This document shows, one piece after another, positions 3,027 to 31,837 of a DNA stretch of 38,201 bases (its first letter is position 1; each line of letters starts with the position of its first letter). The DNA is taken from NCBI GenBank assembly GCA_030065755.1, contig JASJDA010000034.1, positions 1 through 38,201 on the forward strand, in the 5' to 3' direction. The position numbers and the translations under genes were made by a program. The DNA is from Prochloraceae cyanobacterium (GTDB taxonomy: Bacteria; Cyanobacteriota; Cyanobacteriia; Cyanobacteriales; JASJDA01). Under the pieces are notes generated by a model. That model saw only the letters and a program-made list of their open reading frames with translations. It had not been told where the DNA came from and did not search any database.

Positions 3027-4178
3027 TCAATCTCTAATTTGCAGGGGCATAACTAAATATGTCATTTTTACCCCTCCCAAGGGAGTGAAAATTACTGGTT
3101 GAGTTCGTGCATTTAATTGCATTTGTATGTCAGTTGTTGGCAGTGCTTTTAATCCGTCCATCAAATATTTAACATTAAAAGCAACTTCTATATCTTCACC
3201 AGTAATTTGAGCTGGCATTGACTCTTTGGCACTACCGATATCTTGAGATTTGACAGAAAGAAAAAGTTGCTCTTGGCTGCCATCTATTGTGAATTTAACC
3301 AGATTTTTTTCGTCTGCTAGCACCGCTACTAACTCCAAACCACTTAACAACCGCTTGCGATCGACACTGGCTGTGGTGGCAAATTCAGTAGGAATTAATT
3401 TTTGATATTCTGGATATATTCCTTCTAATTTGCGAGTGGTTAAACGTCGATCGCTCAACTCAAATACCACCTGAGTGTCGTCAAAATGCAATTCTATTAA
3501 TCCGTTAGCTTCCTCCCCTGTCAGCATCTTTTCTAATTCCCGCAAGGCTTTAGCCGGAATAGTGACAGAAAATTCTCCTCCTTTGTCTTCTTCTGGGGAG
3601 TTTTCTAATTGGGTTTGCACTACCGCTAAGCGGTGTCCGTCAGTTGCAGCAAATTCAATAGTATCTCGATCGCCTGTTAAGCGCACTCCTGTTAACACTT
3701 GTTTGGTTTCATCGGTACTTGCAGCAAATAAAGCGCCTTTGATTCCTTCGCTGAGTATTTCAACTGGCAGCATGAAGGCAACTTCATCTTCAATTACAGG
3801 TAATTCTGGGAATTCTTCGGCATTCATTCCCCTAATTTGAAACTTTCCCGAAGCAGAAGTCAAGCTTACTGTAGTTTCTTCCCCATCTATTTCTTCTCCA
3901 TCGCAAATGAGGGAAATTTCTCCTTCTGGCAGCCGAGAAACAATGTCGTTGAGTAGTTTTGCTGGTAGGGTTATGCTTCCTCCTAGGTTGACTTCTGCAT
4001 TAAAGCTAGTGCGAATACCGAGGCTGAGATCGAAACCTGTTAGACTGATTCTCTGAGTTTCTTGGTTTGCTACCAATAATACATTTCCTAGTATTGGATG
4101 AGTAGGACGAGACGGTACTACCCGACTTACTTGGGATAGGTTGTTTTTTAACTCGCTTTGGCTGCAAACTATTTCCAT
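3027..4178 (-). CDS. dnaN: DNA polymerase III beta subunit (sliding clamp)
   Basis: At 383 residues it has the usual length for a bacterial beta clamp. The N-terminus MEIVCSQSELKNNLSQVSRV followed by RPTHPILGNVLL is characteristic, and the C-terminus ends in VMPLQIRD, close to the family's typical V-M-P-x-(R/Q)-(L/I) ending that helps form the hydrophobic partner-binding pocket. DnaN forms a dimeric ring that tethers replicative polymerase to DNA. It lies about 2.9 kb from dnaA on the same strand, with a histidine kinase and an IS605 remnant between them rather than in a classic dnaA-dnaN operon. The 251-bp gap before the TonB-like gene shows no clear terminator. Confidence 0.97.
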   Translation of the reverse strand: MEIVCSQSELKNNLSQVSRVVPSRPTHPILGNVLLVANQETQRISLTGFDLSLGIRTSFNAEVNLGGSITLPAKLLNDIVSRLPEGEISLICDGEEIDGEETTVSLTSASGKFQIRGMNAEEFPELPVIEDEVAFMLPVEILSEGIKGALFAASTDETKQVLTGVRLTGDRDTIEFAATDGHRLAVVQTQLENSPEEDKGGEFSVTIPAKALRELEKMLTGEEANGLIELHFDDTQVVFELSDRRLTTRKLEGIYPEYQKLIPTEFATTASVDRKRLLSGLELVAVLADEKNLVKFTIDGSQEQLFLSVKSQDIGSAKESMPAQITGEDIEVAFNVKYLMDGLKALPTTDIQMQLNARTQPVIFTPLGGVKMTYLVMPLQIRD

Positions 4179-4272
4179 AGGTCGATCGCACTTTTTTGGC
4201 TTTTAGGCAGATCTATTGTACTAAAAAAAGTCGAGTTTTTGCTCTAGTAAACTCACTGGTTCGATCGATCCA

Positions 4273-5475
4273 CTAAAGGTAGCCCTCCTCAAAGGTAGCC
4301 TTGCTCAAAGGAAGGGCTACAGTAAAAGTAGTGCCAACTCCGACTTGACTTTCTACTGAAATCTCACCTGAATGTAGTTCGACGCATTTTTTCACAATTG
4401 CTAATCCTAAACCACTGCCAGCAATTGTATCGACATTACTAGCACGATAGAAAGGCTCAAACAATTGTTTTTGGTCTTCAAAAGGAATACCAATCCCCCG
4501 ATCGCGCACGCGAAAGCTAACACTTTTTTCCTGCTCGCTCGCGCCGAAGTAGATCGTAGCTCCTTCTGGGGAATATTTGATGGCGTTGGCGAGTAAATTA
4601 GCCAAAATGTGTCGTAGAAGATCGCGATCGCACAATACCCCCCTTAATTCCCCAGAACAGGTGAAAGTAATATTGATATTACTTTCATCGTTACTCCATT
4701 TGAACTCTTCTACCAGCGATCGACAGAATAATATTAAATCCAGTGGCGCGAGTTGACATTCGAGTTTACCCGAATTAGCTCTACCGATTAAAATAAACTC
4801 CTCCAACATTCGATCCATCCTTTTAATCGCCGAGCGAATCAACTGAAAATGAGCTAATTTTTTCTCCTTACTCAAGATGTTTTCGCTTTTGAGTAGCAGG
4901 CCACTAGAAAGTAAGATCGCATTCATAGGATTGCGGAAGTCGTGAGAAAGCATGGCCAGAAATTCAGATCTGAGGAGATCGACTTCTTTAGCTTTAAGCA
5001 TTTCCACAGTTTGTCGATCGATCTCCGTTTCTAATGCCTCATTTTCTTGTCGCAATTTTTCTTGAGCCTGCTTGCGCTCGATAGCGTAGCATAAGGAACG
5101 AACCAATATTTCGGGTTTAATATGTTCCTTGAACAGATAATCTTGCGCTCCTCGTCTGACTGCCTCAATTGCCAGTTTATCGTCATTAGTATTAGTTAAA
5201 ACTACAATCGGTAAGCTCGGCGCTAGTTCCATCAAGGGTTGTAGGGATTCCAATCCTTGAGAGTCTGGTAAGCCTAAATCCAATAAGACCAGATCGAAAT
5301 AGTCTCGATCGATTTCCTTGAGTGCTTCTTGCAATCGCTTGACGTGTATCAGACTAAACTGTTTTTGTTCGGCTACTTTAAGAAACTCCTGCAAAAGTAT
5401 AGCTTCTGCCAGATTATCCTCTATCAACAAGATTTTTACAGAGTTTCCAGACATGACGTTAGAGTTTTTACTCAA
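4273..5475 (-). CDS. Receiver-histidine kinase fusion (hybrid two-component protein)
   Basis: The 400-residue protein has an N-terminal receiver domain (about residues 12-130) with acidic E19-D20, phospho-acceptor D66 in DLVLLDLGLPDS and conserved K116. A coiled linker follows, then a HisKA domain with H178 in LSHDFRNPM and a HATPase domain with the N box (ILANLLANAIKYS), G1 (RDRGIGIP), F box (FEPFYRA) and G2 (GSGLGLAIV). No membrane segment or sensory domain is present, so the protein is cytoplasmic and its receiver probably takes the input from another kinase. This REC-HisKA-HATPase layout is common in cyanobacteria. It is an orphan: no response regulator adjoins it. Signal and targets are unknown. 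Confidence 0.9.
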   Translation of the reverse strand: MSKNSNVMSGNSVKILLIEDNLAEAILLQEFLKVAEQKQFSLIHVKRLQEALKEIDRDYFDLVLLDLGLPDSQGLESLQPLMELAPSLPIVVLTNTNDDKLAIEAVRRGAQDYLFKEHIKPEILVRSLCYAIERKQAQEKLRQENEALETEIDRQTVEMLKAKEVDLLRSEFLAMLSHDFRNPMNAILLSSGLLLKSENILSKEKKLAHFQLIRSAIKRMDRMLEEFILIGRANSGKLECQLAPLDLILFCRSLVEEFKWSNDESNINITFTCSGELRGVLCDRDLLRHILANLLANAIKYSPEGATIYFGASEQEKSVSFRVRDRGIGIPFEDQKQLFEPFYRASNVDTIAGSGLGLAIVKKCVELHSGEISVESQVGVGTTFTVALPLSKATFEEGYL

Positions 5476-5712
5476 GTTTATTTAGTGCTAAAATCAAGTT
5501 ATTTTTATTAGCAAAAACTTTTCTTATATTATCATAATAAGTCGAAGCATTTGGTAATTTCAAAAACTGTTTCAACCAGTCTTGTTTTGCTTTTCCCTAC
5601 GTTTCACGCCACTAAGCGGAGCCGGAGAGCCAGATCGCTGTCCAACCATTTGCACCACTAATTACAGCGCTCGATCGAAATTATCTTTAGTTCTATCTAT
5701 TAGAGCGTGAAG

Positions 5713-5760
5713 TACCCCAACTTACTTCGTTGAAGTTGGGGCGTTGCCTTCGCTCAAGGC
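5713..5760 (-). repeat. Double hairpin at the 3' end of the tnpB remnant (IS605-type right end)
   Basis: CCCCAACTT (5715-5723) pairs perfectly with AAGTTGGGG (5733-5741), and GCCTT (5746-5750) with AAGGC (5756-5760). They overlap and follow the tnpB stop codon. IS200/IS605 elements carry such subterminal hairpins instead of inverted repeats, and the same segment usually forms part of the omega RNA. This assignment is from position and structure only. Confidence 0.6.
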
Positions 5761-6552
5761 GTAACCGTCTTGATACACAGCGTTTCAACTGTCTCTTTAG
5801 GCGTAGATTCGGACACTTCCTGCCCTATTTTTAGTTCGGAAAACTGAAGCAAGTTTAAACAAGCATTAATATCTCGATCGTGATGGGCGTGGCATTCTAA
5901 ACATTCCCATTCTCTATCTTTTAAGGTTAAATCTTCCTTTTAAGGAGCTTTGAAAATAACGAGGATTAGGGAATTTCTCTGGTTTACTCGTAATAACAAA
6001 GTCTTTTAAACCGAGATCTAGACCTATTCTTTCTCCGTTTAAATGAGCTTTAGGGATTTCTAACTCTGTAACAATAGAAGCATAGTATTTCCCTGAAGCT
6101 GTTTTGCTAATTGTTACGCTTTTAATTTGCCCTTCTATTTCTCGATGGATGACCATTTTAATCGAGGTCATTTTGGGAACTTTTAACTTTCCTTTCTCCC
6201 TAATTGAGAAATGTTGAGGAACTCTAAAAGATTGCTTGTTAGAACGTTTTTTAAACTTAGGAAACTTTGCCTTACCTTTAAAAAATTTTACATAAGCTGA
6301 CTCTAAGTCTTTAAGAGTCTGTTGCAAAGATTGAGAGTTAACTTCTTTTAGCCATTCAAACTCTTTCTTTAAATGGGTCAAAAGTTTAGCCCACTCTTTG
6401 TACCTTAAACTCTTTTTGCAATCAGCATAAACATCGGTAGTTAGCCTTAAAAAATGATTATAGACAAAACGAGAACAGCCGAAACACTTAGCTAAGAAAG
6501 CTTGCTGCTCTTGATTGGGATATAGCCTAAATTTATATGCTTTGTTACCCAT
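5754..6552 (-). pseudogene. tnpB: IS605-family tnpB with an internal deletion and frame change
   Basis: The 5' part (6552 to 5914) encodes 212 residues with the TnpB N-terminus (NKAYKFRLYPNQEQ, CFGCSRFVYNHFL) and the first RuvC motif IGLDLGLKDF. It then meets a stop in FNLKR. In another frame, overlapping this end, the sequence continues as [22 protein letters not shown], the end of the zinc ribbon plus the last RuvC Asp, and stops at 5754-5756. Full-length TnpB is about 400 residues, so roughly 130 are missing, including the RuvC-II glutamate and the first zinc CxxC. The protein should be inactive as a nuclease. Hairpins at 5713-5760 and 6653-6700 probably mark the element ends. Confidence 0.85.
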
Positions 6553-6652
6553 GTTTATTGCCTCTTACCCAAAAGATAGCATAGCTTATCTATTTTAATC
6601 AAAAAAGTTAAACTAATTTTTTAAGGAGACTCTATCGGATGTTAATATACTG

Positions 6653-6700
6653 GTTGCCATTCATCCCCACCTTATAAGAAGGATGGGGTATTCTGGCAAC
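6653..6700. repeat. Long imperfect hairpin, probable left end of the IS605-type element
   Basis: Outer arms GTTGCCA (6653-6659) and TGGCAAC (6694-6700) enclose an inner stem CCCCACCTT (6665-6673) with AAGGATGGGG (6079 bases before the window's middle third; positions 6679-6688), which has one bulged base. It sits about 100 bp upstream of the tnpB start. No T run follows in the dnaA direction, so a transposon end is likelier than a terminator. Confidence 0.5.
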
Positions 6701-6904
6701 ATTAGGATAAATATTGGTCTTGTTTGTTATTCAAAGAAGTTTTGCCAAAAGCCTCTGGCCATGAAACGATCGGAGTCAATACTGTTAGGATAAGCTCTTT
6801 TCTCTTTCCCCCTGCCTCCCCTGCTTATCTCAACCGAAGATTTTTCTTAACGGAACAGTATTGAGATCGAGCGATCGCCAGAAGTTTATATGCAAATATT
6901 TTTC

Positions 6905-7040
6905 TGTGGAAAAACTGTGGAAAAATATAGTTTGTTTTCCACAATCTCTAAATCTTCAGTCGATTTTTTGGGAAAAATATGGGATTTTTAGGGATAATTT
7001 TGCTAAAATATGGTTTTTCAAATTGGCAAAGTTTTCCACA
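6905..7040. other. oriC: Probable replication origin (oriC): DnaA-box cluster downstream of dnaA
   Basis: Four perfect copies of the DnaA box TTTTCCACA lie within 136 bp: two inverted, as TGTGGAAAA at 6905-6913 and 6916-6924, and two direct at 6935-6943 and 7032-7040. The first three are packed within 39 bp. The 88 bp between the third and fourth boxes is AT-rich with runs such as GATTTTTTGGGAAAAAT and could serve as the unwinding element. The cluster begins 8 bp after the dnaA stop codon. Origins beside dnaA or dnaN with clustered boxes are the bacterial rule, and this 9-mer is the form used in cyanobacteria. That it is the active origin is inference. Confidence 0.75.
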
Positions 7041-7047
7041 GAATTTG

Positions 7048-8493
7048 CTAATTTTTGGTTCTACTAACTAGATTGATGCGATCGCTCAACTGAGATAGAG
7101 TTTGACTCAACTGGGAGTCTTTGTGTTGTAATTGACTTATCTTGTCACAACTATACATTACTGTGGTGTGGTCTTTACCCCCAAATTGTTCTCCAATTCT
7201 AGGTAAACTCAAATCGGTATGCTGGCGCATCAAATACATGCCAATTTGTCTGGCAAAGCTAATTTCCCGCCGTCGCGAGTTTCCTTTCAAATCCTCGATC
7301 GAAACGTTTAAAGCTTCTGAAACTACTTGAATGATTGTTTTGGGGGAAGCTTTTACTTTCTCAACTGTAGGGTTTAAAATAGGGGCGATATTTTCTACTG
7401 TCATCGCCAAACCAGAAATAGAAATATAAGTTATTGCCCGAATCAAAGCTCCTTCTAATTCTCTAATATTAGAATTGTAGTTAGTAGCAATATATTCGAT
7501 CGCCGATCGCGGCAAAGACATATTTTCATATTCGGCTTTTTTCTGCAAAATTGCCATGCGGGTTTCTAAATCTGGAACTTGAATATCGGCAATTAACCCC
7601 ATAGAAAAGCGAGAAATTAATCTTTGTTCTAAGGTAGGAATTCGATTGGGGGGTCGATCGCTTGCTAACACCACTTGTTTACCTGCTTCGTGCAAGGTAT
7701 TGAAAGTGTGAAAAAATTCTTCTTGGGTGTATTCCTTGCCTTCAATAAACTGAATGTCATCTACTAAAAGAATATCCGCAGTGCGATAATGTTCGCGAAA
7801 GGTTTGCATACTGTCTTTGCGGATCGCAGCAATCAAGTCGTTTGTAAACTGCTCGCAAGAAACGTAAAATACTCGATCGTCTGGAGCAATTTCTAGACGA
7901 TAGTGACCGATCGCTTGCATTAAATGAGTTTTACCCAAACCAACCCCACCGCAGAGAAACAGAGGATTAAAATCACTTCCTGGAGATTCAGCTACAGCAA
8001 GGGAAGCTGCGTGTGCCATGCGGTTAGTCGGGCCAACTACAAACCGATAAAAAGTATATTTAGGATTTAATTTTGTCGATTTGAAGCGAGAAGAATCTAG
8101 TTTTTCCGATTTATTTGCTTCGATCTGACTCTCATTTGTAGGTTGCTTGCTATTGCTGCGTCTCTTAGTTACAATACCTTCCTCTAAGTAAAAGTCGTTA
8201 TCGGCAGATAATTGGCGATCGGATAAATTTTTGATATTTTCTTCTCGATCGGCTGTTAGTTGAATCTCTACCGATTGACCTACAATATCCCTTACTACAT
8301 CAGCAATGGTTTGTAGGTAGTGTTTCTGTAGGTGATTGAGAACAAAAGGATTTGAGGTGCGAATTAGCAAGCAATTGTTTCTAAATTCAATTGCTTCAGC
8401 CGTCTTAATCCAAGTTTCAAAAGTGGGGCGACTCAGTTGCAGTTGCAGGCGCTCCAAGACTTGATTCCATAGTTGTTTCGAGGATAGTTTCAC
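7048..8493 (-). CDS. dnaA: Chromosomal replication initiator protein DnaA
   Basis: The 481-residue protein has the four DnaA domains. Domain I at the N-terminus carries [23 protein letters not shown] charged variable linker covers about residues 82-145. The AAA+ domain has Walker A GVGLGKTH (183-190) and Walker B ILLVDD (241-246). The C-terminal helix-turn-helix carries the DnaA signature [12 protein letters not shown], which binds DnaA boxes. It forms the ATP-dependent initiator oligomer at oriC. Its stop codon lies 8 bp from a cluster of four DnaA boxes. It is divergent from def across an 86-bp gap that must hold both promoters. Cyanobacterial DnaA is conserved even in species that can replicate without it. 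Confidence 0.98.
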
Positions 8494-8579
8494 GGTTTAG
8501 TTACAAGTAAGATTAGGCCATAAGTTTGCTGGGGTAACATATAGATCGAAATTGTATTATCTTTCGCCCTTTCTTTGTC

Positions 8580-9104
8580 ATGGCTAAACTTTTAGAAATT
8601 GCCCAATTAGGTAATCCTATTTTGCGACAAGTTGCCCGACCTGTAGAAAATATTAACGCTCCCAGCATACAAAAGTTAATAGACTTTCTTATGTCTACTG
8701 TATCGAGCGCTAATGGGGTTGGTATTGCTGCACCTCAAGTATCTCAGTCTTATCGTCTGTTTATTGTTGCTTCTCGCCCTAATTCTCGCTATCCTAACGC
8801 TCCTTTAATGAAACCATTAGTAATAATCAATCCTAAAATTACAGGTCATTCTGAGGAAATGGTCAAAGGGTGGGAAGGCTGTTTGAGTATTCCTGGAATC
8901 AGAGGTTTAGTCCCTAGATATCGAACTATAGAAGTTGAATATCTCAGTGTGGATGGAACTTTACACCGACAAGAATTTACCGATTTCGTGGCTAGAATTT
9001 TTCAACACGAATTAGACCATCTCAACGGTATCGTTTTCGTCGATCGTCTAGAAACTACCCTAGATATGTTTACCGAGCAAGAATATCAAAAATTAAACAA
9101 ATAG
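8580..9104 (+). CDS. def: Peptide deformylase
   Basis: The 174-residue protein has all three deformylase motifs in order: GVGIAAPQV (motif 1), EGCLSIPG (motif 2, whose Cys is a metal ligand) and HELDHLNG (motif 3, HExDH, supplying two metal ligands and the catalytic Glu). It removes the formyl group from the N-terminal methionine of nascent proteins, acting at the ribosome with a bound divalent metal. The length and the N-terminus ending in the LGNPILRQVARPV segment are normal. It is divergent from dnaA; TATTAT at about 8554-8559 is a plausible -10 hexamer. A 591-bp gene-free region follows. Confidence 0.97.
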   Translation: MAKLLEIAQLGNPILRQVARPVENINAPSIQKLIDFLMSTVSSANGVGIAAPQVSQSYRLFIVASRPNSRYPNAPLMKPLVIINPKITGHSEEMVKGWEGCLSIPGIRGLVPRYRTIEVEYLSVDGTLHRQEFTDFVARIFQHELDHLNGIVFVDRLETTLDMFTEQEYQKLNK

Positions 9105-13899: not shown

Positions 13900-14505
13900 T
13901 TACGAAGATTTTGGAGTGTCTTCCTCAGTCGGTAACTGGGGTTCGCTGGAGTAGTGGAACTTAATAAAGCTGTCGAAAGCATACCAGCCCAAGACGTACC
14001 AAGGAATAGCTCCTAGTTGTACTCCCCTAACCACTAACTGACGCAATGCTAGGGCACTAAAGCCCAGGGGAATGAGAAACCGTAAATCGAAAGCTCCATT
14101 ACTGGCTGTTTTAACTTGCTGATTTAGTTGAGTCGCCCCAGCGATTAATTCCGCTGCTGCCTCAGATTTTCCCAGATTCGTAGCTTTTTCTGGGAAAATA
14201 TTGTCCAAAATAATGCCTGAATCCCCTAAAAGAGCGGAGATTTTGGCTAAATCGCTGCGTTCCTTGTTGTAGAAAATAGTAATGCTGCCGTTAACTACAT
14301 TGGTTCGCACGCGATCGATCTCAACAGACTCAGATAGGACACTGGCAACTCGTTTCATCTGTTCTGGTTGACGGAACTCCTGAGCAACAAGCAATCGAAT
14401 TCGTCCAGGAGTCTCACTAATCGAGCGAGCAGTGATAAGCAAAGAACCTGTTTCTGGAACTTCTTGGATTAATTTTGGTATTTTACCATCATTGGCGATC
14501 GCCAT
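13900..14505 (-). CDS. HMA_2-like domain protein with membrane tail, cassette A, last gene
   Basis: The 201-residue protein has a ferredoxin-like HMA_2-type domain at about 24-100, recognised by SETPGRIRLLV and by NVVNGSITIFYNKE. A hydrophobic part follows at about 140-185 (FDLRFLIPLGFSALALRQLVVRG, IPWYVLGWYAFDSFIKFHY). The CxxC metal site of classic HMA domains is absent. It is closely similar over its whole length to the protein at 25330-25905: both share DLRFL(I/V)PLGFS, IPWYVL(G/A)WYAFDSFIKFHYS. The ATG is preceded by GGAGG nine bases away and lies 16 bp after the DUF5132 gene, so it belongs to the ATPase operon. Function is unknown; an accessory to the ATPase is inferred. Confidence 0.75.
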   Translation of the reverse strand: MAIANDGKIPKLIQEVPETGSLLITARSISETPGRIRLLVAQEFRQPEQMKRVASVLSESVEIDRVRTNVVNGSITIFYNKERSDLAKISALLGDSGIILDNIFPEKATNLGKSEAAAELIAGATQLNQQVKTASNGAFDLRFLIPLGFSALALRQLVVRGVQLGAIPWYVLGWYAFDSFIKFHYSSEPQLPTEEDTPKSS

Positions 14506-14521: not shown

Positions 14522-14779
14522 TTAAGTTTCAGTTTCTTGTTGAGATAGTTCTGCTTGAGCTTCTGCCACTAGGTCTTCAAAAACCTCCCCTGCTTCTACT
14601 ATGGCACCTTTGGCCTTTTGATAGAGCGTAATTCCACTTTTGAGAGCAGTCTTAGCAATCGGTTTACCGACCTTAGCTATAGGTGGAATGAGAAGAGGAG
14701 CAAGGACTAGGGCGCCTATTCCGGTAACAATTCCAGGTGTTCCTACATCTTCTAACACATCTTCGATTTTAACTACCAT
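14522..14779 (-). CDS. DUF5132 protein (cassette A, second copy)
   Basis: At 85 residues it has a short acidic start (KIEDVLEDVG), a glycine-rich membrane helix (GIVTGIGALVLAPLLIPPI), a basic turn (AKVGKPIAKTALKSG) and an amphipathic acidic helix (GAIVEAGEVFEDLVAEAQAEL). This plan is shared by three other proteins in the window (14944, 26150, 29115). The layout resembles mycobacterial PacL/DUF1490 proteins, small membrane partners of metal P-ATPases, which also have a Gly-rich helix and an acidic LAEA-type C-terminal helix. Homology is not shown. Here the tail lacks His or Cys. The start is supported by GGAGG six bases upstream. STRR tracts lie just before it. Confidence 0.8.
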   Translation of the reverse strand: MVVKIEDVLEDVGTPGIVTGIGALVLAPLLIPPIAKVGKPIAKTALKSGITLYQKAKGAIVEAGEVFEDLVAEAQAELSQQETET

Positions 14780-14793
14780 AATTACCTCCTTTT

Positions 14794-14842
14794 GCTGTTG
14801 GCTGTTAGCTGTTGGCTGTTAGCTGTTAGCTGTTGGCTGTTT
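14794..14842. repeat. Heptanucleotide STRR, seven copies of GCTGTT(G/A/T)
   Basis: Seven contiguous 7-bp units run from 14794 to 14842, alternating GCTGTTG and GCTGTTA. Read in gene direction they lie just ahead of the DUF5132 ribosome site. The same unit, GCTGTTA, occurs four times or more at 29441-29468 in the matching place of cassette B. Confidence 0.9.
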
Positions 14843-14854
14843 GTATATAATTTT

Positions 14855-14938
14855 CTCCCCCTCTCCCCCTCTCCCCCTCTCCCCTGCTCCCCACACTCCC
14901 CACACTCCCCACACTCCCCCTCTCCCCACACCCCTCTA
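14855..14938. repeat. C-rich tandem repeats (CTCCCC and CACACTCCC units)
   Basis: About four CTCCCCCT-type units are followed by about four CACACTCCC units. The strand bias is extreme (almost pure C/T and A). It separates the two DUF5132 genes of cassette A and is mirrored by 29475-29541 in cassette B. Confidence 0.9.
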
Positions 14939-14943
14939 TTCGC

Positions 14944-15210
14944 TTAATCTTCAACGGATTTAGCTGCTTCTAGTTCTGCTTTGGCTTCGGAGACCAATTC
15001 TTTGCCCCCTTCGTAGATCGTCATGCCTCCTTTGATAGTTGTTTTGGCAACGGATTTTCCCACTTTCTTGGCTGCGGGAACTATAATGGGTGCCAGCAAT
15101 AGAGCGCCGATAGTTCCTAGAAGCAATGCTGTCGTGCCAGAAAGAAGAACCCGATGACCTAAAAGATTCCAATTGGCAAGTTCTTTACCTAATTCGTATT
15201 CCCATTTCAC
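14944..15210 (-). CDS. DUF5132 protein (cassette A, first copy)
   Basis: The start is placed at the GTG at 15210 (MKWEYELGKELANW, 88 residues), because a strong AGGAGG lies nine bases upstream of it. A longer frame that begins with TTG at 15234 would run through that ribosome site. The protein has the DUF5132 plan: a polar start, a Gly/Leu membrane helix (LLSGTTALLLGTIGALLLAPI), a basic turn (AAKKVGKSVAKTTIKGG) and an acidic C-terminal helix (GGKELVSEAKAELEAAKS). It lies 35 bp downstream of the P-type ATPase and probably shares its transcript. It diverges more from the other three copies at the N-terminus (LGKELANWNLLGHRV). A role as membrane partner of the ATPase is inferred. Confidence 0.8.
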   Translation of the reverse strand: MKWEYELGKELANWNLLGHRVLLSGTTALLLGTIGALLLAPIIVPAAKKVGKSVAKTTIKGGMTIYEGGKELVSEAKAELEAAKSVED

Positions 15211-15245
15211 GATCGATTTCCTCCTAAATTTCAAACTTTTTAACT

Positions 15246-17534
15246 TTAACTTTCACCTATTAGTGGTCGAAGTCCGTTCACTCCTGCAGCGATCGCCGAA
15301 CCATTGTGAATTACAGTGGCTAGGAGGGGATTTAGTCCCACAGTTGTAGCTACAGAAAGTGCTGCTACATTGGGAATGACAGCAAGGCTAGTATTTTGAC
15401 CGATCAGTTGTTGGGTTTGTTTGGCAAGGGAAATCGCTCTAACTAAACTATCCAAGTCATTTTCCATTAACACTACATCTGCTGTCTCCCGCGCTACTTC
15501 TGAGCCATCGCCAAAGGAAACGGAAACATCTGCATAAGCGAGCGCTGCTGAGTCATTAATCCCATCTCCGACAAAAGCTACTGTTTTGCCTGATTCGTGC
15601 AATTGACGAACAATAGTTGCCTTTTGCTCTGGGAAAGCTTCTGCATGAATGTTGTCCTCAGAAATACCTAATTCTTTGGCAACCGTTAAAGCACGGTAAC
15701 GACGATCGCCAGTGAGAATGTGAATATCTAGCCCTCGATCGTGCAATGCTTTAATTACGCTTTGGCTTTCAGGACGCAGAGGATCGGTGTATTCAACTAC
15801 CCCTAGCAATTGTCCGTTACTTGCCACATAGATGAGGGAAGCGCCTTCAAGATCTCGATGTTGTACGTGGAGAGATTCAAGACTAATACCTTGCTCGTTC
15901 ATAAAGCGAGCGCTACCCACTAAAACATTTTCCCCGTCGATTTCTGCACGCACGCCAAAACCAACTTTATAGTCCCACTTGCCGCGCCGCAACTGCCTTA
16001 CTTTCTGTTCTCGCGCATAATCGACTAAAGCTTGGGCAACTGGATGAGTAAGACGTTTTTCTGCTGCTGCTGCTAGTTCTAATAGTCTTTCAGGAGCAGA
16101 TCCGTTGACTGTTCTGACTCCAGCTACGACTACATCTCCTTGAGTGAGAGTGCCAGTTTTGTCGAAAACTACTGCATCCACTTCAGCCAATTGTTCTAGG
16201 CTGCGTCCGCTACGGATGAGAATGCCTCGTTGTGCTGCTGCGGTCATAGATGCGAGAACAGTAGTAGGTACGGAAACGCGAATGCCAGTCATAAAATCGA
16301 GGGTGAGAATAGAAGCAGCTCTTGCCATGCTTCCCGTACTAAGTAAAACTCCACCTGAGAATAACAAAGCGGGTAAAATTGCTTTGTCAGCCAGTTGAGC
16401 CGCGTGGTTTTCCATGCGGGTATCGTAAACAGGAGCATCTTCGACTAATTTAACGCTCTGTCCGGCGCGAGTATCAGAACCAGTGCGTTCTGTCAAGATG
16501 TATAGTTGTCCTTCCCTTACTAGAGTAGAAGCATAAACAGTTTGCCCGACTTCTCGCGTTACAGGCATGGACTCGCCAGTAAGTTTTTGCTGGTCGATCG
16601 AGGCTTTACCCTGTAGAATTTTACCGTCAACTGGAATTTGTTCTCCTGGATAGACAATAATAACATCTCCTGGATTCACTTGTTCGACAGGAATCTGCTC
16701 TTTTGTGCCGTTGCGATCGACCCAGGCGAATTTGCTGAGGGAATCGAGGAGGTCTAAAGCGTGGCGCGTCGATTGGCGAGCGGTGCGATCGCGAATCAAA
16801 TCCCCAATTTCGTGCAGCATCAAGATCGCAGAGGGGGTGAGCAAATTTCCCTGTAGGCTGGTGAGGGTAAGTGCCATGAAGTCGAGGCAGTCAATATTCA
16901 AACGCTGATTTGACCAAATGCTTGACATGGCTCTTTTTGCCACAGGAAGGCTAGCAGCAGCAACGGTTCCTCCAATGAGAGTAGCGGGAATAGGCCACCC
17001 TAGTGGCCCTGCTAGTAAAGCGAGACCAGTTGCTAAAACTGGAAGTTTCAAATCCGACCAAGAGCTTGAGGATTTTTTCTTGTCTGACTCTGAAGTGTCG
17101 GGGACGATCGCTGTAGTAGCTAGCTGAATTAAACTTCTCAGATGCAGGAGCATTTCCTCGTCTGAAATTTGTTTGGTTTGATATGCGATCGCAACAGACA
17201 TGGCTGCTGGCTTTAGTCGGAAATAAGTGACGTAAGGATCTGCTTCGAGCAAAACTTTCAAACGATGGACGTAGTGAGTATCCCAAGCGATGCGAGACAC
17301 CCGAAACCTTATTCGTCCTGGAGTAGTGTGAACGACGCTATAAGGCACTAACAGCTTAGTGAAGTCAATAGTCTTTGAGTGCCTCTTTTGTTGTGATTCG
17401 ATCGCCTGCACCTCACGCTCAATTTTCTGCGGATGGACTTGGCTAATTTGAGTTGGCAAAACAACCGCTAGTTGTTGATTCTGCTTGAGAACTTTTTCTG
17501 GAGAAGTTGAATCTAGTTGTACTGCTACTACCAC
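15246..17534 (-). CDS. P1B-like P-type ATPase without a CPC motif (cassette A)
   Basis: The 762-residue protein starts at a GTG 3 bp after the preceding stop, behind GGGGGG. An HMA_2-like domain with VVHTTPGRIRFRV lies at about 65-125 and lacks CxxC. Catalytic parts are complete: actuator LTGES (318-322), phosphorylation D458 in FDKTGTLTQGD, the P1B-type HP pair (497-498) and the hinge VGDGINDSAAL. In the transport helix, where P1B pumps have Cys-Pro-Cys, alignment back from the conserved Pro gives Phe-Met-Thr (414-416, context DFMTGIRVSVPTT). The HP pair and fold place it with heavy-metal pumps, but the ligand residues are replaced, so the substrate cannot be named. The flanking HMA_2 and DUF5132 genes are probably its accessories. 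Confidence 0.92.
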   Translation of the reverse strand: MVVAVQLDSTSPEKVLKQNQQLAVVLPTQISQVHPQKIEREVQAIESQQKRHSKTIDFTKLLVPYSVVHTTPGRIRFRVSRIAWDTHYVHRLKVLLEADPYVTYFRLKPAAMSVAIAYQTKQISDEEMLLHLRSLIQLATTAIVPDTSESDKKKSSSSWSDLKLPVLATGLALLAGPLGWPIPATLIGGTVAAASLPVAKRAMSSIWSNQRLNIDCLDFMALTLTSLQGNLLTPSAILMLHEIGDLIRDRTARQSTRHALDLLDSLSKFAWVDRNGTKEQIPVEQVNPGDVIIVYPGEQIPVDGKILQGKASIDQQKLTGESMPVTREVGQTVYASTLVREGQLYILTERTGSDTRAGQSVKLVEDAPVYDTRMENHAAQLADKAILPALLFSGGVLLSTGSMARAASILTLDFMTGIRVSVPTTVLASMTAAAQRGILIRSGRSLEQLAEVDAVVFDKTGTLTQGDVVVAGVRTVNGSAPERLLELAAAAEKRLTHPVAQALVDYAREQKVRQLRRGKWDYKVGFGVRAEIDGENVLVGSARFMNEQGISLESLHVQHRDLEGASLIYVASNGQLLGVVEYTDPLRPESQSVIKALHDRGLDIHILTGDRRYRALTVAKELGISEDNIHAEAFPEQKATIVRQLHESGKTVAFVGDGINDSAALAYADVSVSFGDGSEVARETADVVLMENDLDSLVRAISLAKQTQQLIGQNTSLAVIPNVAALSVATTVGLNPLLATVIHNGSAIAAGVNGLRPLIGES

Positions 17535-17537
17535 GAT

Positions 17538-18443
17538 CTATCCCCCCGTCATTACTTCTGTGCTTAGGTCTGGCATTTTTGCGATCGAGTCTAGAAAACT
17601 CCAAAGTATAGAAGGGTTATATCCAGAACACAATCCATTTAGTTGGGCTTTATTTAACGGCGATTTTTCTTCTTCGCTGAAGACAGGAGCAAGGCTGTTT
17701 GTCTCTTCCTTAATATCCGGCTCGATCGTTTCGACACTGACCGATCGATGTCCGTTTAAGTTTTCCTCTAAGGGACGAGATCCGCTCGAATTTCCTGTTG
17801 CTGAGTTATCTTCTAACTCAACATTTTTTGTCTCTGGAGTACTGAAAGCTTTTGCTGCCAGTGCTAGGGTAAGAAATTGAGAAATATCTACTTCCTTTTC
17901 CTTCTTTTCTTCTGCTTCCGTGCTTTCCTCCTCCGCTTGTCTTTTTTCTGTGTCTTTCTCTTGCTCTTTTTCTACAAGAGGCGGCAACTGTTGCAGCATC
18001 TCCCTAGTTATTGCTGCTGTTGCGATATAAATCGGTAGGGAGAGCCAACCGCCTATTCCTAAAGTTCTTGTCATTAATATTCCCGAAGTTAGGGGAATTA
18101 ATCTTTCTATTACTTCACCCGATACTTTCTGAAATGAGTTGGCTGAAGATGACTTAGCTTTAGAGAGAGAAGAAGGTGAAAACATTCTTGAATTGCAATT
18201 ATAGCCAGGGAGAGTTAACAACAAGCTAGATAAAGATACGCTGGCAACGTCAAAATTCACTACTAAACTGCCTGTATTTTCATTCAGCTTGACTTGGTAA
18301 ACTCCTTCTTGCTGTTTTAGCTGTTGGGCTGCGGTACGAAGAGTTTGCTGGGAGGCTCCACGCGACCGCAACCGCACCCGCCCTGCTGTAGCGTGAACTA
18401 CTTCAATTCCAGTTTCTTTTTGTTGTCCTCTCATATCAGCCAT
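17538..18443 (-). CDS. HMA_2-like domain protein with long charged tail (cassette A, first gene)
   Basis: This 301-residue protein opens the operon. Its HMA_2-type domain (about 12-75) has VVHATAGRVRLRS and ENTGSLVVNFD, again with no CxxC. Hydrophobic segments follow (about 110-150, LIPLTSGILMTRTLGIGGWLSLPIYIATAAIT), then a Glu/Lys-rich stretch (VEKEQEKDTEKRQAEEES) and a low-complexity C-terminal region of about 120 residues. The first 150 residues match the protein at 31838-32365, which lacks the long tail. GGAGGAG lies nine bases before the ATG. The ATPase GTG follows 3 bp after its stop, so coupling in translation is likely. The function is unknown; a regulatory or metal-delivery subunit is a guess. 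Confidence 0.75.
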   Translation of the reverse strand: MADMRGQQKETGIEVVHATAGRVRLRSRGASQQTLRTAAQQLKQQEGVYQVKLNENTGSLVVNFDVASVSLSSLLLTLPGYNCNSRMFSPSSLSKAKSSSANSFQKVSGEVIERLIPLTSGILMTRTLGIGGWLSLPIYIATAAITREMLQQLPPLVEKEQEKDTEKRQAEEESTEAEEKKEKEVDISQFLTLALAAKAFSTPETKNVELEDNSATGNSSGSRPLEENLNGHRSVSVETIEPDIKEETNSLAPVFSEEEKSPLNKAQLNGLCSGYNPSILWSFLDSIAKMPDLSTEVMTGG

Positions 18444-20373: not shown

Positions 20374-20601
20374 TTAATTGGCAGCCCCATCGACATAAAT
20401 GCTTTTTGCTGTTTCGCGATCGACTGCGGCGCGGGTTCTGCCCACTTTGACAATATAGGAAGGAAACCGTTGTTCTAAGGTAATAGAAACTCCTGGGAGC
20501 ACTCCCATTGCCATCAGTTTGCGAATCATCGCATCATCTGAGGTTTTCAAGCAAGCTACCGTATCTATTTTTCCAGTTTTTAGAGAAGAAAGTGCCATCA
20601 T
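20374..20601 (-). CDS. feoA: FeoA ferrous iron transport accessory protein
   Basis: The 75-residue protein has the FeoA SH3-like pattern: LSSLKTGKIDTVACLKTSDD, the loop RKLMAMGVLPGVSITLEQRFP, YIVKVGRTRAAVDRETAKSIYV. FeoA is a cytosolic partner of FeoB needed for Fe(II) uptake. Its ATG overlaps the stop of the FeoB membrane part (TGATG), so the two are translationally coupled. It follows FeoB in this operon, the reverse of the common FeoA-FeoB order. Confidence 0.93.
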   Translation of the reverse strand: MMALSSLKTGKIDTVACLKTSDDAMIRKLMAMGVLPGVSITLEQRFPSYIVKVGRTRAAVDRETAKSIYVDGAAN

Positions 20602-22064
20602 CAGAAACTCACCCCCAATATTGTTAAACTAAAATTGACTAGATATCCCATGAAGAAAGCAAAGGGAATAATAAACGCTATCATTGCCAAAGTGGTTTTC
20701 AAGCCTTGTTCTTTAATCATTATTTGCACTTGGGCAATGCAGGGCAAAAACAGAGTCAGCACAATGGCAGCCACTACTAATTGATTGCCACTCAAGGCAA
20801 GTTGTTGCTGCAAGTCGAATAATCCTGCTGCTCCGTAATCCCTTCTGAAAAAGCCGTATAAGAAAATTGGCGCTACTTGTTCGGGAAGTCCTAAAGCCAG
20901 GGTAATAGGTTCGAGCAATCCAATAATCTGCTCGAACAGTCCAGTTAATCGACCGAACCAAATTAAAACAGATGCCCAAATAAATAAGGGAATAATTTCA
21001 AAGAAATACCATTTCATTCTGACGTAAGTTTTGATGAGAATGTTTTTGAACTTAGGCAACCTCAAAGGCGGAATTTCCATGTAAAAGCCTGCTTTTTTTC
21101 CTGGCAATAGTTGCGCCGTTAAATAGCCAACTACGATGAAAACCACCGTGATAAACCCAGCCCAAAATAAAAGTGCTGCTGGCTTTTGGGCTAAAAGTCC
21201 CACAATTACGCCCCACTGAGCAGCACAAGGAACGGCTAATGCGAGAAGAAATGTGGAAATCAGCCGCTCTCTTTTGGTTTCTAAGGTACGGGTGACTAGA
21301 GTGGCCATGGTATCGCAACCCAATCCCAAGACCATAGGAATGACGGCGCGTCCCGATAAACCGATCGATTTGAACAGACGATCGAGCATCAGGGACAATC
21401 GGGGTAGATAGCCACTGTCTTCTAGAAAGGAAAACATTAAGAAGTAGGTGGCTACTACTGGCAGTACGATCGCTGTAGCGTAGCGAATTCCTAGAGTAAT
21501 AATGCCGTAGTCGTTGGCAATTAAGTCTTGAAGCGGTTGCCAAGGGATAATAGTTGCTACAATCTGGTTGACAACTGGATTGATATTTTCTTCAAAAAAG
21601 GTTTCAATAGTATCGACTAGGGTACCTGCACCAAATTCGCCGACAAATTTATAGACACCGAAGTAGAGAATGAAAACCAAGATGGGAAATCCCGTTATTG
21701 GATTAACCGTTAGCTTGTGTATGGTTTCACTCAAAGGTGTTTTTGCCTCAGAGGGTTCCCTGAGTACTTGTTGCTCCATCTGCCAAGCCAATTGCTGGCG
21801 AGAAGAGGCGATCGCCGCGGTTACTGGTTCTCCTAGCTGTTCGCTTGCTATTAAGATCGCGGCTTCAATCTCTGCAAGTAGTTTGTCATTTTGCTCTAAT
21901 CTTTCCCACAGCGTGGGGTCTTTTTGCAAGACGAGTAATGCCAAGCTGCGCCTAGAGATGGGATAAATATTATCTAGGGAGAGTTTATTTTCTCTAGATA
22001 ATAGAGATTCGATCTCAGCGAGGGCTTTCTCAATAGCTTCTGGATAGGCAATTTGAGCTAACAT
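20601..22064 (-). CDS. feoB: FeoB membrane (permease) part of a split FeoB
   Basis: The 487-residue protein starts with a helical stretch (EAIEKALAEIESLLS) that belongs to the GDI-like helical region after the G domain. It continues with membrane helices including the gate motifs PMVLGLGCDTMATLVTRT and AVPCAAQWGVIVGLL, and near the end FLPCIAQVQIMIKEQG. It carries no GTPase domain. Its ATG lies inside the last 35 bases of the GTPase gene in another frame, with GGGTGG just upstream; a TAA closes this frame seven codons before the ATG. FeoB imports Fe(II) across the cytoplasmic membrane. Both the Cys-containing gates are intact, so the channel part looks functional. Confidence 0.9.
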   Translation of the reverse strand: MLAQIAYPEAIEKALAEIESLLSRENKLSLDNIYPISRRSLALLVLQKDPTLWERLEQNDKLLAEIEAAILIASEQLGEPVTAAIASSRQQLAWQMEQQVLREPSEAKTPLSETIHKLTVNPITGFPILVFILYFGVYKFVGEFGAGTLVDTIETFFEENINPVVNQIVATIIPWQPLQDLIANDYGIITLGIRYATAIVLPVVATYFLMFSFLEDSGYLPRLSLMLDRLFKSIGLSGRAVIPMVLGLGCDTMATLVTRTLETKRERLISTFLLALAVPCAAQWGVIVGLLAQKPAALLFWAGFITVVFIVVGYLTAQLLPGKKAGFYMEIPPLRLPKFKNILIKTYVRMKWYFFEIIPLFIWASVLIWFGRLTGLFEQIIGLLEPITLALGLPEQVAPIFLYGFFRRDYGAAGLFDLQQQLALSGNQLVVAAIVLTLFLPCIAQVQIMIKEQGLKTTLAMIAFIIPFAFFMGYLVNFSLTILGVSF

Positions 22065-22662
22065 ATTCCGCCACCCTTGCTTTTAATTCGTTCACTCCAA
22101 AATTAGCAGCAGCCGCCATAGTCACCACTGGAATTCCCAATTCTCTTTCGAGATACTCTGGGTTAATTTCGATTCCCAACTGCTGGGCTTCGTCCATCAT
22201 GTTGATAGCTAAGATCGAGGGTAAACCTGCCTCTATTAGTTGAAAGGTTAAAGGCAGCATCCGCCCTAAATTTTTGGCATCCACCACGTGAATGACCACA
22301 TCGAAAGATTGAAAGAGCAACAAGTCACGAGCGACTTTTTCTTCTTCGGTAATTGGCAGCAACGAGTACATTCCTGGCGTATCTACTACTGCTACTGGGA
22401 GCTCGCCGATCGAGGTTTGTCCTCTAGAAACTTCTACTGTCGTACCTGGATAGTTAGAAACCGTAACATAAGTACCTGTCAACCCATTAAACAGCACGCT
22501 TTTCCCTACGTTGGGCATTCCCACTAAAGCGATTTGGGTCATTTTTACCGATTCAGCTGTGGTTGTTTCCTTTTTTTTCCGAAAAAAGCCTAATAAACCC
22601 CTTTTCTTTTGGCGAGGACTATCGCTACATTTCAATTTCATGGGACATTTATTACATTGCAT
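22030..22662 (-). CDS. feoB: FeoB GTPase part of a split FeoB, with Cys-containing N-terminal extension
   Basis: The 210-residue protein has the FeoB G domain: P-loop GMPNVGKS (48-55), switch region VTVSNYPGTTVEV, G3 DTPGMYSL and G4 NMMD. It ends after GVNELKARVAEYV, where the helical region would begin. Before M41, the usual FeoB start, there is a 40-residue extension with Cys3, Cys6 and Cys12 and a very basic stretch (RQKKRGLLGFFRKKK). AGGAGG seven bases upstream supports translation from the first ATG. The following membrane gene overlaps it by 35 bases. A Fur-like box lies 86 bp upstream. The cysteine cluster might bind iron or a cluster, which is inference. Confidence 0.9.
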   Translation of the reverse strand: MQCNKCPMKLKCSDSPRQKKRGLLGFFRKKKETTTAESVKMTQIALVGMPNVGKSVLFNGLTGTYVTVSNYPGTTVEVSRGQTSIGELPVAVVDTPGMYSLLPITEEEKVARDLLLFQSFDVVIHVVDAKNLGRMLPLTFQLIEAGLPSILAINMMDEAQQLGIEINPEYLERELGIPVVTMAAAANFGVNELKARVAEYVSSNCLSRSY

Positions 22663-25329: not shown

Positions 25330-25905
25330 TTATGGGTTATTGGGTTTATTGTCGGTTGAATAATGAAACTTAATAAAACTGTCAAAAGCATACCACGCCA
25401 AGACATACCAGGGAATAGTTTCTATAAGGAAACCTTTGAGTAGTAGCTGTCGCGCAGCTAGTATGCTAAAGCCAAGGGGTACGAGAAAGCGCAGGTCGAT
25501 CGCGTCGTCAGTTGCTAGTTTTACTCTTCTGTTTAGTTGAGAAAAAGTACTAATTACTTCTGCCCCTGCTTCCGATCTTCCCTCGGTATTTGTTGGTTTA
25601 GAGATGGAATCCTGCAAACTTACTCCTAATTGTTGCAAAAGAATGCGTATTTGCTCGAAATTACTGTGCTCCTTGGCGTAAAATATAGTAATACTACCAG
25701 TCTGTAGATTATTCCGCAACCTGTAAATCTCGAGACGTTCTTGCAAAACTTTAGCAATTCGCTCTATTTCCTCCCGTTTGCGAGATTCCTTAGCAATTCG
25801 CAACCTCAATCTCCCTGGAATTTGGCTGACAATATAGGCAATTATTTTCGAATCTAGTAATTGTTGTGTTTGCAGTGGCATTTTTTTGTTATTGTCGCTT
25901 AGCAT
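25330..25905 (-). CDS. HMA_2-like domain protein with membrane tail (cassette B)
   Basis: The 191-residue protein is a full-length paralogue of the product of 13900-14505. Its HMA_2-type domain (about 15-90) has VSQIPGRLRLRI and NLQTGSITIFYAKE without CxxC. The hydrophobic part has IDLRFLVPLGFSILAARQLLLKG and IPWYVLAWYAFDSFIKFHYS. Two in-frame Met codons (25905 and 25881) are possible starts; neither has a strong ribosome site. It is followed 18 bp later by the WD40 gene and preceded, across a 244-bp gap with a small-RNA candidate, by a DUF5132 gene. In cassette A the equivalent gene lies 16 bp after DUF5132, so the gap here is an insertion or expansion. Confidence 0.75.
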   Translation of the reverse strand: MLSDNNKKMPLQTQQLLDSKIIAYIVSQIPGRLRLRIAKESRKREEIERIAKVLQERLEIYRLRNNLQTGSITIFYAKEHSNFEQIRILLQQLGVSLQDSISKPTNTEGRSEAGAEVISTFSQLNRRVKLATDDAIDLRFLVPLGFSILAARQLLLKGFLIETIPWYVLAWYAFDSFIKFHYSTDNKPNNP

Positions 25906-26149: not shown

Positions 26150-26455
26150 CTAGGTAGATTCGTGACTGACTTCACTAGGAGCGATCGTTTTTTCCACTTC
26201 CTCTTCAGCCAGTTCCACCTTAGCTTCTGCAACTAGGTCTTCAAAAACTTCTCCCGCTTCGGCGACAACTCCCTTAGCTTTTTCGTAGGCAACGATTCCA
26301 CCTTTAATAGCTGCTTTAGCAATAGGTTTGCCAACTTTAGCTACAGCAGGAATCAGCAAAGGAGCCATAACCACTGCGCCTATACCCGCTATAACACCTG
26401 GAACGCCTACTGTATCAGCAACATCTTCTAACAGATCTTCAGGTTTAAATGCCAT
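26150..26455 (-). CDS. DUF5132 protein (cassette B, second copy)
   Basis: The start is put at the ATG at 26455 (MAFKPEDLLEDVADTVG, 101 residues), behind AGGGGG; an in-frame GTG six bases earlier overlaps that ribosome site. The protein has the DUF5132 plan: an acidic start, Gly-rich membrane helix (GVPGVIAGIGAVVMAPLLIPA), basic turn (AKVGKPIAKAAIKGG) and acidic helix (GVVAEAGEVFEDLVAEAKVEL), followed by a Glu-rich tail ending in HEST. It is nearly identical in the core to the copy at 14522-14779, which marks the two as equivalent members of the two cassettes. It is separated from the rest of cassette B by mgtE and pstB and has its own promoter region. Confidence 0.82.
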   Translation of the reverse strand: MAFKPEDLLEDVADTVGVPGVIAGIGAVVMAPLLIPAVAKVGKPIAKAAIKGGIVAYEKAKGVVAEAGEVFEDLVAEAKVELAEEEVEKTIAPSEVSHEST

Positions 26456-26461
26456 ATACAC

Positions 26462-29114: not shown

Positions 29115-29420
29115 TTAGCCACTTTCAGAAGTGGCTTCGACTGTCAAGACTTTTTCGGCTGCATTTTCAGCTAGTTCTGCCTTGCTTTCGGCTACAATAT
29201 CTTCCAAAGCTTCTCTGGCTTCTGCCAAAACTCCCTTGGTTTTTTCATAGACCACAATGGTGCTTTTTACAGCCGCCTTAGCAACAGGTTTGCCAACCTT
29301 TGCCAGTCCTGGACCGAGAATAGGTGCGAGAATTATTGCACCAACACCAATAGCAAGACCAGGTAAACCAAAATCTTCAACAAAATCTCCAATGTCAAGA
29401 TCGAAAAGTTCGAGAGACAT
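29115..29420 (-). CDS. DUF5132 protein (cassette B, first copy)
   Basis: The 101-residue protein has an acidic start (LFDLDIGDFVEDFG), a Gly-rich membrane helix (LPGLAIGVGAIILAPILGPG), a basic turn (AKVGKPVAKAAVKS) and an acidic helix (GVLAEAREALEDIVAESKAEL) with a short tail. GGAGG stands six bases before the ATG. It follows the cassette B ATPase by 132 bp, a gap filled by STRR and C-rich repeats. As with the other three copies, it has a single membrane span and no Cys or His, so if it binds metal it would have to use carboxylates. Confidence 0.82.
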   Translation of the reverse strand: MSLELFDLDIGDFVEDFGLPGLAIGVGAIILAPILGPGLAKVGKPVAKAAVKSTIVVYEKTKGVLAEAREALEDIVAESKAELAENAAEKVLTVEATSESG

Positions 29421-31796: not shown

Positions 31797-31837
31797 AGCA
31801 CCCCCTTTGTCTTTATTAACGACACAATCGATGTTAT

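What the first reader, a model, noticed from the sequence alone, without database searches (positions are those of the whole stretch)
14522..15210. DUF5132 proteins may be cyanobacterial equivalents of PacL partners
Four DUF5132 proteins (14522, 14944, 26150, 29115) share a Gly-rich single membrane helix, a basic turn and an acidic amphipathic helix with (V/I)AEA-type sequence. Mycobacterial PacL (DUF1490) proteins, which cluster with metal P-ATPases and stabilise them in membrane platforms, have the same size and plan. In both, the gene sits next to the ATPase. If right, DUF5132 would gain a function: scaffold or chaperone for the ATPases. Sequence homology is not demonstrated, and here the tails lack the metal-binding His/Asp ending.
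Basis: partly seen in the sequence, partly recalled or inferred. Interest (0 to 1): 0.75.

Follow-up and report, generated by a model that had tools for sequence, protein, structure and literature searches.

The report
Cyanobacterial PacL-like metal-pump partner proteins
Small cyanobacterial membrane proteins of unknown function (DUF5132) sit beside an unusual class of ion pump, come and go from genomes together with it, and look like distant relatives of the PacL proteins that cluster and stabilise metal pumps in the tuberculosis bacterium, so they now have a specific, testable job.

Summary
In detail: four DUF5132-type proteins (three over the Pfam cut-off, one below), each with one membrane helix, a basic turn and an A/E-rich helix ending in VAEA or similar; three lie in two P1B-ATPase operons. 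The PacL reading is largely supported.
(1) Homology. Pfam's DUF1490 model matches one DUF5132 protein collinearly at E=6e-5, better than it matches the DUF6110 proteins already called PacL-like (1.4e-3). A DUF1490 profile ranks DUF5132 proteins in the first 22 places of 2972 ORFs; shuffled, reversed, TatA and YtxH controls score lower. hhalign gives only 5-16%, as for DUF6110-DUF1490.
(2) Context. 51 of 70 DUF5132 ORFs lie within 6 kb of an ATPase (about 1.3 expected).
(3) Co-occurrence. The partner ATPase, recognised by its TM4 motif, occurs in 38 of 292 cyanobacterial genomes, 37 of them with DUF5132, even where unlinked.
(4) ATPase class. It carries the HN/NN motif of P1B6 pumps and branches beside DUF6110-linked ones.
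DUF5132 lacks PacL's metal-binding tail, its conserved Lys and a universal GxxG: PacL-like, not PacL. Function is inferred: scaffold or stabiliser of HMA_2-bearing ATPases, probably not a metallochaperone.

The parts
17538..18443 (-). HMA_2 protein, first gene of cluster 1
   Evidence: Pfam HMA_2 35 bits, cut-off 30
15246..17534 (-). P1B-type ATPase with N-terminal HMA_2-like domain; TM4 motif DFMTGIRVSVPT (coding 16264-16298), TM6 motif HNGS
   Evidence: E1-E2_ATPase and Hydrolase; motifs; tree
14944..15234 (-). short DUF5132-like protein, acidic helix shortened; start codon uncertain
   Evidence: Pfam 15.5 bits, below cut-off; aligns with the family
14522..14779 (-). DUF5132 protein
   Evidence: Pfam DUF5132 56 bits
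13900..14505 (-). HMA_2 protein with C-terminal membrane half, last gene of cluster 1
   Evidence: Pfam HMA_2 44 bits
31838..32365 (-). HMA_2 protein, first gene of cluster 2
   Evidence: Pfam HMA_2 42 bits
29553..31979 (-). P1B-type ATPase with HMA_2-like domain; TM4 DFATGIRVSVPT (coding 30586-30620), TM6 NNGS; the annotated GTG start overlaps the HMA_2 gene, the true start is probably further in
   Evidence: Pfam; motifs
29115..29420 (-). DUF5132 protein
   Evidence: Pfam DUF5132 44 bits
26150..26461 (-). DUF5132 protein without an adjacent ATPase
   Evidence: Pfam DUF5132 48 bits
25330..25905 (-). HMA_2 protein downstream of the third DUF5132 gene
   Evidence: Pfam HMA_2 45 bits

Best explanation
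DUF5132 proteins are the cyanobacterial branch of a PacL-like group of P-type-ATPase partner proteins (DUF1490 in Actinobacteria, DUF6110 mainly in Firmicutes). Each is anchored by one membrane helix, with its acidic A/E-rich helix in the cytoplasm (inferred from the positive-inside rule). The likely job is to bind and stabilise, and perhaps cluster, an HMA_2-bearing ATPase together with the separate HMA_2 proteins of the operon. Shown here: weak sequence relation, gene linkage, genome co-occurrence, ATPase class, natural fusion of DUF5132 to the membrane half of an HMA_2 protein. Inferred: contact with the pump, stabilisation, clustering. Because DUF5132 has no conserved Cys or His and is also found with P2-type (Ca-like) ATPases, a structural role is more likely than metal delivery.
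For: Homology: Pfam DUF1490 model hits DUF5132 protein L066 at 6.1e-5, residues 18-86 on model 15-84 of 88; a DUF1490 profile ranks DUF5132 in the first 22 places of 2972 ORFs; 15 of 65 real against 1 of 1300 segment-shuffled sequences reach 10 bits, YtxH and TatA none. Linkage: 51 of 70 within 6 kb of an ATPase. Co-occurrence: 37 of 38 genomes with the TGIR-type ATPase have DUF5132; 246 of 292 have neither. ATPase class: HN/NN in TM6 and a 100/97 branch uniting them with DUF6110- and CtpC-type pumps. Fusions: five DUF5132-HMA_2 genes, four directly before an HMA_2-bearing P2-type ATPase. PacL function from PMC9374683 and PMC13043812.
Against: hhalign probabilities are only 5-17% for all three family pairs. 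The best bridge, L066, has no ATPase close by. PacL's TM GxxG (needed there for clustering) is not universal: GxxG or GxxxG in 38 of 65 DUF5132; the conserved N-terminal Lys is replaced by an acidic N-terminus. YtxH, a family not known for ATPase partnership, resembles DUF6110 by hhalign (83%), so profile similarity alone does not prove function. No co-fold and no experiment.
Confidence: 0.65

Rival explanations
1. DUF5132 is a genuine ATPase partner but works as a small regulatory subunit (like KdpF or phospholamban/sarcolipin), tuning turnover rather than scaffolding or stabilising; its resemblance to PacL is convergent.
For: Same linkage and co-occurrence data; GxxG not universal, so clustering through the membrane helix is doubtful; profile-profile scores are low.
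Against: The conserved part is the cytoplasmic helix (DxVAEA), collinear with DUF1490 and DUF6110, where PacL's pump-binding EA helix lies; sequence-specific similarity above shuffled and reversed controls.
Confidence: 0.15
2. DUF5132 is a metallochaperone or metal buffer for the pump.
For: Linked to heavy-metal-type ATPases; PacL1 itself binds metal through its tail (PMC9374683).
Against: No conserved Cys or His (mean 0.2 Cys and 1.0 His per protein), tail motif in 2%; HMA_2 ORFs almost never have CxxC (2 of 100); the same partner appears with P2-type ATPases.
Confidence: 0.06
3. DUF5132 is a general YtxH-like membrane stress or structural protein that merely sits near the ATPases.
For: Orphan DUF5132 genes in several genomes; some similarity of the wider class to YtxH.
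Against: Orphan DUF5132 genes of six genomes still come with the ATPase elsewhere in the genome, so linkage alone cannot explain co-occurrence; within several genera species have both or neither; DUF5132-YtxH hhalign is at the shuffled level.
Confidence: 0.08

Closest known systems
PacL proteins (DUF1490, PF07371) of Mycobacterium tuberculosis and other Actinobacteria
   Same: Size (about 100 aa), single membrane helix, basic turn, cytoplasmic A/E-rich helix with D(V/I)VAEA, gene next to a P-type ATPase; Pfam E=6.1e-5 for one member, collinear.
   Different: No metal-binding tail, no conserved Lys before the helix, GxxG not universal, invariant Pro in the membrane helix, acidic N-terminus. DUF1490 pumps have CPC (or SPC in one) in TM4, DUF5132 pumps TGIR.
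DUF6110 (PF19605), called PacL-like in PMC9374683 and PMC13043812
   Same: Plan, lack of metal-binding tail, partner ATPases of P1B6 type with HN in TM6; weak profile similarity in both directions; sister pumps in the tree.
   Different: DUF6110 has SKDAKKxY after the helix and GxxG/GxxxG in 99%; pumps have DFSCALKL in TM4.
YtxH (PF12732) and a YtxH-annotated protein beside a P1B6-like ATPase of Azospirillum (L282 3198-3560)
   Same: The Azospirillum protein has a membrane helix plus GKIVKSGLKLY...MADLQAELEAE; DUF5132 profile E=1.9e-5, Pfam DUF5132 0.0045; HMA_2 genes in the same operon.
   Different: Pfam ranks YtxH first (2.8e-4, below that family's cut-off); long basic N-terminus. Typical cyanobacterial YtxH is not similar to DUF5132 above shuffled level.

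Membership tests
DUF5132 (PF17195) | Match above the Pfam cut-off (25 bits) | tested here: met
   14522, 26150, 29115: 56, 48, 44 bits; not met for 14944 (15.5 bits)
PacL (DUF1490) | Match above the Pfam DUF1490 cut-off (28.4 bits) | tested here: not met
   Window proteins: no match; best relative L066 23.4 bits, E=6.1e-5
PacL (DUF1490) | Single membrane helix followed by a cytoplasmic Glu/Ala-rich helix | tested here: met
   Plan and A+E fraction 0.32 against 0.36 in DUF1490; topology inferred from charge only
PacL (DUF1490) | GxxG in the membrane helix | tested here: inconclusive
   GxxG 43%, GxxxG 32% of 65; either motif 38 of 65; DUF1490 100% GxxG. Each window protein has one of the two
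PacL (DUF1490) | Conserved Lys before the membrane helix (K9) | tested here: not met
   N-terminus acidic, no conserved Lys
PacL (DUF1490) | C-terminal metal-binding motif (not in every PacL) | tested here: not met
   2% against 56%
PacL (DUF1490) | Gene in operon with a P-type ATPase | tested here: met
   Window clusters; 51 of 70 within 6 kb
PacL (DUF1490) | Binds, stabilises and clusters the ATPase | not testable with these tools
   Needs experiment or multimer prediction
DUF6110 PacL-like | Match above the Pfam DUF6110 cut-off (26 bits) | tested here: not met
   No DUF6110 match in the own genome nor among 37 DUF5132 proteins at E up to 10
P1B6-type ATPase (for the partner pump) | HN motif in TM6 | tested here: met
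   HN in 13 and NN in 19 of 34 DUF5132-linked P1B pumps, 2 not seen; window: HN in 15246, NN in 29553
P1B6-type ATPase (for the partner pump) | TM4 as in DUF6110-linked pumps (DFSCALKL) | tested here: not met
   TM4 reads D(F/L)xTG(I/V/L)R(V/L)S in all listed, no conserved Cys: a variant

The most novel reading that the evidence does not exclude
DUF1490, DUF6110, DUF5132 and a YtxH-like proteobacterial form are one ancient group of membrane scaffolds which, with HMA_2 proteins, organise P-type ATPases of more than one class (P1B6-like and P2-type) into membrane assemblies across phyla, independent of the ion pumped.
Probability: 0.3. Interest if true: 0.78.

Novelty: new variant of a known kind. 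Interest (0 to 1): 0.62.

Why it matters
PacL-organised 'effluxosomes' were described in mycobacteria (PMC9374683, PMC13043812), with DUF6110 proteins named as related. If DUF5132 is the cyanobacterial branch, pump scaffolding extends to photosynthetic bacteria, a family with no function gains a testable one, and harmless laboratory cyanobacteria become hosts in which to study it. The partner pump is itself uncharacterised: a P1B6-like ATPase whose TM4 motif reads TGIR. The use of the same partner with P2-type pumps would show that the scaffold is not tied to one metal.

Tried and rejected
Metallochaperone reading: disfavoured for lack of conserved Cys/His. Mere hitch-hiking by linkage: disfavoured, since unlinked DUF5132 genes still co-occur with the ATPase. 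Filing DUF5132 under DUF1490 or DUF6110: rejected, below the cut-offs and key motifs missing. A 'rotated helix' decoy for hhalign was useless as a null because it keeps the VAEA motif; only segment shuffles and reversals were used. AlphaFold2 of the DUF5132-HMA_2 fusion gave pLDDT 40 and was discarded; the DUF5132 model is one helix, so no fold search was made. tblastn of a window DUF5132 protein against plasmids found nothing at E 0.01, although one cyanobacterial plasmid copy turned up through its ATPase. The DUF1490 and DUF6110 bait sequences were approximations from memory; only database sequences found with them, or annotated with those family names, were used afterwards. A solved-structure search with the DUF5132 profile gave nothing credible. 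Promoter and terminator scans of cluster 1 were at or below chance.

Full report
What is there. On the minus strand the window holds a five-gene cluster: HMA_2 protein (17538-18443), P1B-ATPase with an N-terminal HMA_2-like domain (15246-17534), a short DUF5132-like protein (14944-15234), DUF5132 (14522-14779) and a second HMA_2 protein (13900-14505), with gaps of 3, 11, 164 and 16 bases. A second cluster has HMA_2 (31838-32365), P1B-ATPase (29553-31979) and DUF5132 (29115-29420). A third DUF5132 (26150-26461) stands before an HMA_2 gene (25330-25905) without an ATPase. The same genome has a further group on contig C329: an HMA_2-ATPase, a short DUF5132-like gene and a DUF5132 gene. The genome has 11 P-type ATPases; the three P1B pumps with HMA_2 are exactly the ones with DUF5132 in their clusters. 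A fourth HMA_2-bearing pump, P2-type, on C146, has none within the stretch read.

The proteins. Across 37 non-redundant cyanobacterial sequences the plan is: acidic N-terminus, a membrane helix with Gly at its start and an invariant Pro, a turn G-K-P-x-A-K, and a helix ending G-E-x-x-x-D-(I/L)-V-A-E-A-(K/R)-A-E. Invariant residues are one Pro and two Glu; nearly invariant are G, two K, A, E, E, D, A, A. Mean charge is -1.1 in the 15 residues before the membrane helix and +2.4 in the 15 after, so by the positive-inside rule the acidic helix is cytoplasmic (inference). A second, shorter subfamily without the acidic tail (MSLIHWDKSVL...) also lies near these ATPases in eight loci; 14944 resembles an intermediate.

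Is it related to PacL? Nine DUF1490 proteins were taken from annotated actinobacterial plasmids and 115 DUF6110 proteins mostly from Firmicutes. A DUF1490 profile searched against 2972 ORFs of the cyanobacterial loci puts DUF5132 proteins in the first 22 places (best E=7e-5). A DUF6110 profile does nearly the same (best 0.0095), and a DUF5132 profile finds DUF6110 first (0.003). Controls matter because any membrane-helix-plus-amphipathic-helix protein scores something: with the DUF1490 profile the medians are DUF5132 6.9, DUF6110 9.7, YtxH 4.2, TatA -1.0, DUF5132 shuffled within segments 0.0, DUF5132 reversed within segments -0.1 bits; 15 of 65 real against 1 of 1300 shuffled reach 10 bits. 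Independently, Pfam's own DUF1490 model, in a scan of all 24736 families, hits DUF5132 protein L066 at E=6.1e-5 over residues 18-86 on model 15-84 of 88, so membrane helix and tail helix align in order; allowing for 37 queries this is about 0.002. The best DUF6110 protein of 23 reaches DUF1490 at 1.4e-3, a relation the PacL authors already accept (PMC9374683). Profile-profile comparison is weak for all three pairs (5-17%), though each beats all of 100 segment shuffles. I judge homology likely (about 0.75), not proven. One weakness is that L066, the best bridge, is itself a DUF5132 gene with no ATPase close by.

Genomic association. Of 70 DUF5132 ORFs, 38 lie within 1 kb and 51 within 6 kb of a P-type ATPase; with free HMA_2 genes and fusions 59. 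From 11 ATPases in 8.46 Mb about 1.3 of 70 would be expected (many loci are related, so the ratio means more than the p-value). These loci were fetched by DUF5132 alone, so the count is not biased by ATPase presence. As an unlinked test, the partner ATPase was sought by its TM4 DNA pattern in the same 292 genomes: 38 have it, 37 of them with DUF5132; 8 have DUF5132 without the pattern; 246 have neither; by genus 23, 1, 8 and 84. Of the 8, G116 has the ATPase with a Leu that the pattern excluded (L062); G005, G022, G143 and G286 have DUF5132 beside or fused ahead of an HMA_2-type or related P2-type ATPase; G231 has an isolated fusion gene; G030 (at a contig edge) and G074 have only HMA_2 genes in view. 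The single ATPase genome without DUF5132 (G229) has its two ATPase genes at or near contig ends. Six genomes with an orphan DUF5132 gene have the ATPase elsewhere (G085, G089, G179, G241, G247, G280). In genera g2, g14, g16, g22, g26, g33 and g64 some species have both and others neither, so the association has been gained or lost repeatedly.

The pump. DUF5132-linked P1B ATPases have D(F/L)xTG(I/V/L)R(V/L)S in TM4, where DUF6110-linked pumps have DFSCALKLA, and HN or NN in TM6, HN being the P1B6 hallmark named in PMC9374683. In a 47-sequence tree the HMA_2-type pumps (DUF5132-, DUF6110-, Azospirillum, Priestia and the CtpC-like DUF1490-linked ones) are separated from ZntA, CopA and the other DUF1490-linked pumps by a branch of 100/97 support; if rooted on the latter, DUF5132-linked pumps are sister to the DUF6110-linked plus Azospirillum pumps. 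What the TGIR pumps carry is unknown; NCBIfam names them only as heavy-metal P-type ATPases.

A link to a second ATPase class. Five genes fuse DUF5132 with the C-terminal membrane half of an HMA_2 protein (Pfam model positions about 84-150; the ferredoxin-like half is absent). Four of them lie directly before a roughly 1000-residue P2-type ATPase, most of which begin with an HMA_2 stretch; a non-fused case is L054. A partner used with pumps of such different transport sites, and without conserved Cys or His, is more plausibly structural than metal-delivering (inference).

Mechanism, graded. Shown: family plan, weak homology, linkage, co-occurrence, pump class, fusion. From literature on PacL: membrane-helix contacts build clusters and the EA-rich helix recruits and stabilises the pumps (PMC13043812). 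Inferred for DUF5132: its acidic helix binds the pump or its HMA_2 domains; it stabilises and may cluster pumps; the HMA_2 membrane protein is a second structural partner (fusion logic). Clustering is the least certain step because GxxG is not conserved.

Novelty. DUF5132 appears in no paper of the held library, and the PacL papers name DUF1490 and DUF6110 but, in the passages read, not DUF5132 or cyanobacteria. That makes it a new variant of a known kind. Much subscription literature is not in the library.

Noticed in passing
window 20374-22662 (minus strand): feoA is followed by a feoB that is split into two overlapping ORFs: a GTPase half (22030-22662) and a membrane half (20601-22064). Natural split or frameshift not decided.
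   Followed up: no
L070, L071, L078, L069, L080: Natural fusions of DUF5132 with the membrane half of an HMA_2 protein, four of them directly before a roughly 1000-residue P2-type ATPase; most such ATPases themselves carry an N-terminal HMA_2 stretch, an unusual domain for that class.
   Followed up: partly
L282 1670-5656 (Azospirillum plasmid): Operon of two HMA_2 genes, three small membrane proteins (one similar to DUF5132, one weakly to DUF1490) and a P1B6-like ATPase with HN and DYSCALKLA motifs: a possible proteobacterial version of the system.
   Followed up: partly
L035, L038, L040, L053, L057, L058, L065, L088; compare window 14944-15234: A second, short DUF5132-like subfamily (MSLIHWDKSVL...) without the acidic tail, encoded near the same ATPases.
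   Followed up: partly
window 3027-9104; L042 and L045: dnaN, dnaA and peptide deformylase lie in the same region as the DUF5132 clusters; in L042 and L045 dnaA and a deformylase gene also lie within a few kb of a DUF5132/HMA_2 pair.
   Followed up: no
window 28210-29028; L055 8328-9146: A PstB-like ABC ATPase gene sits next to DUF5132 both in the window and in an otherwise ATPase-free DUF5132 locus of another genome.
   Followed up: no
window 32692-33948: Papain-family (C1) protease with a long Asp/Glu repeat tail.
   Followed up: no
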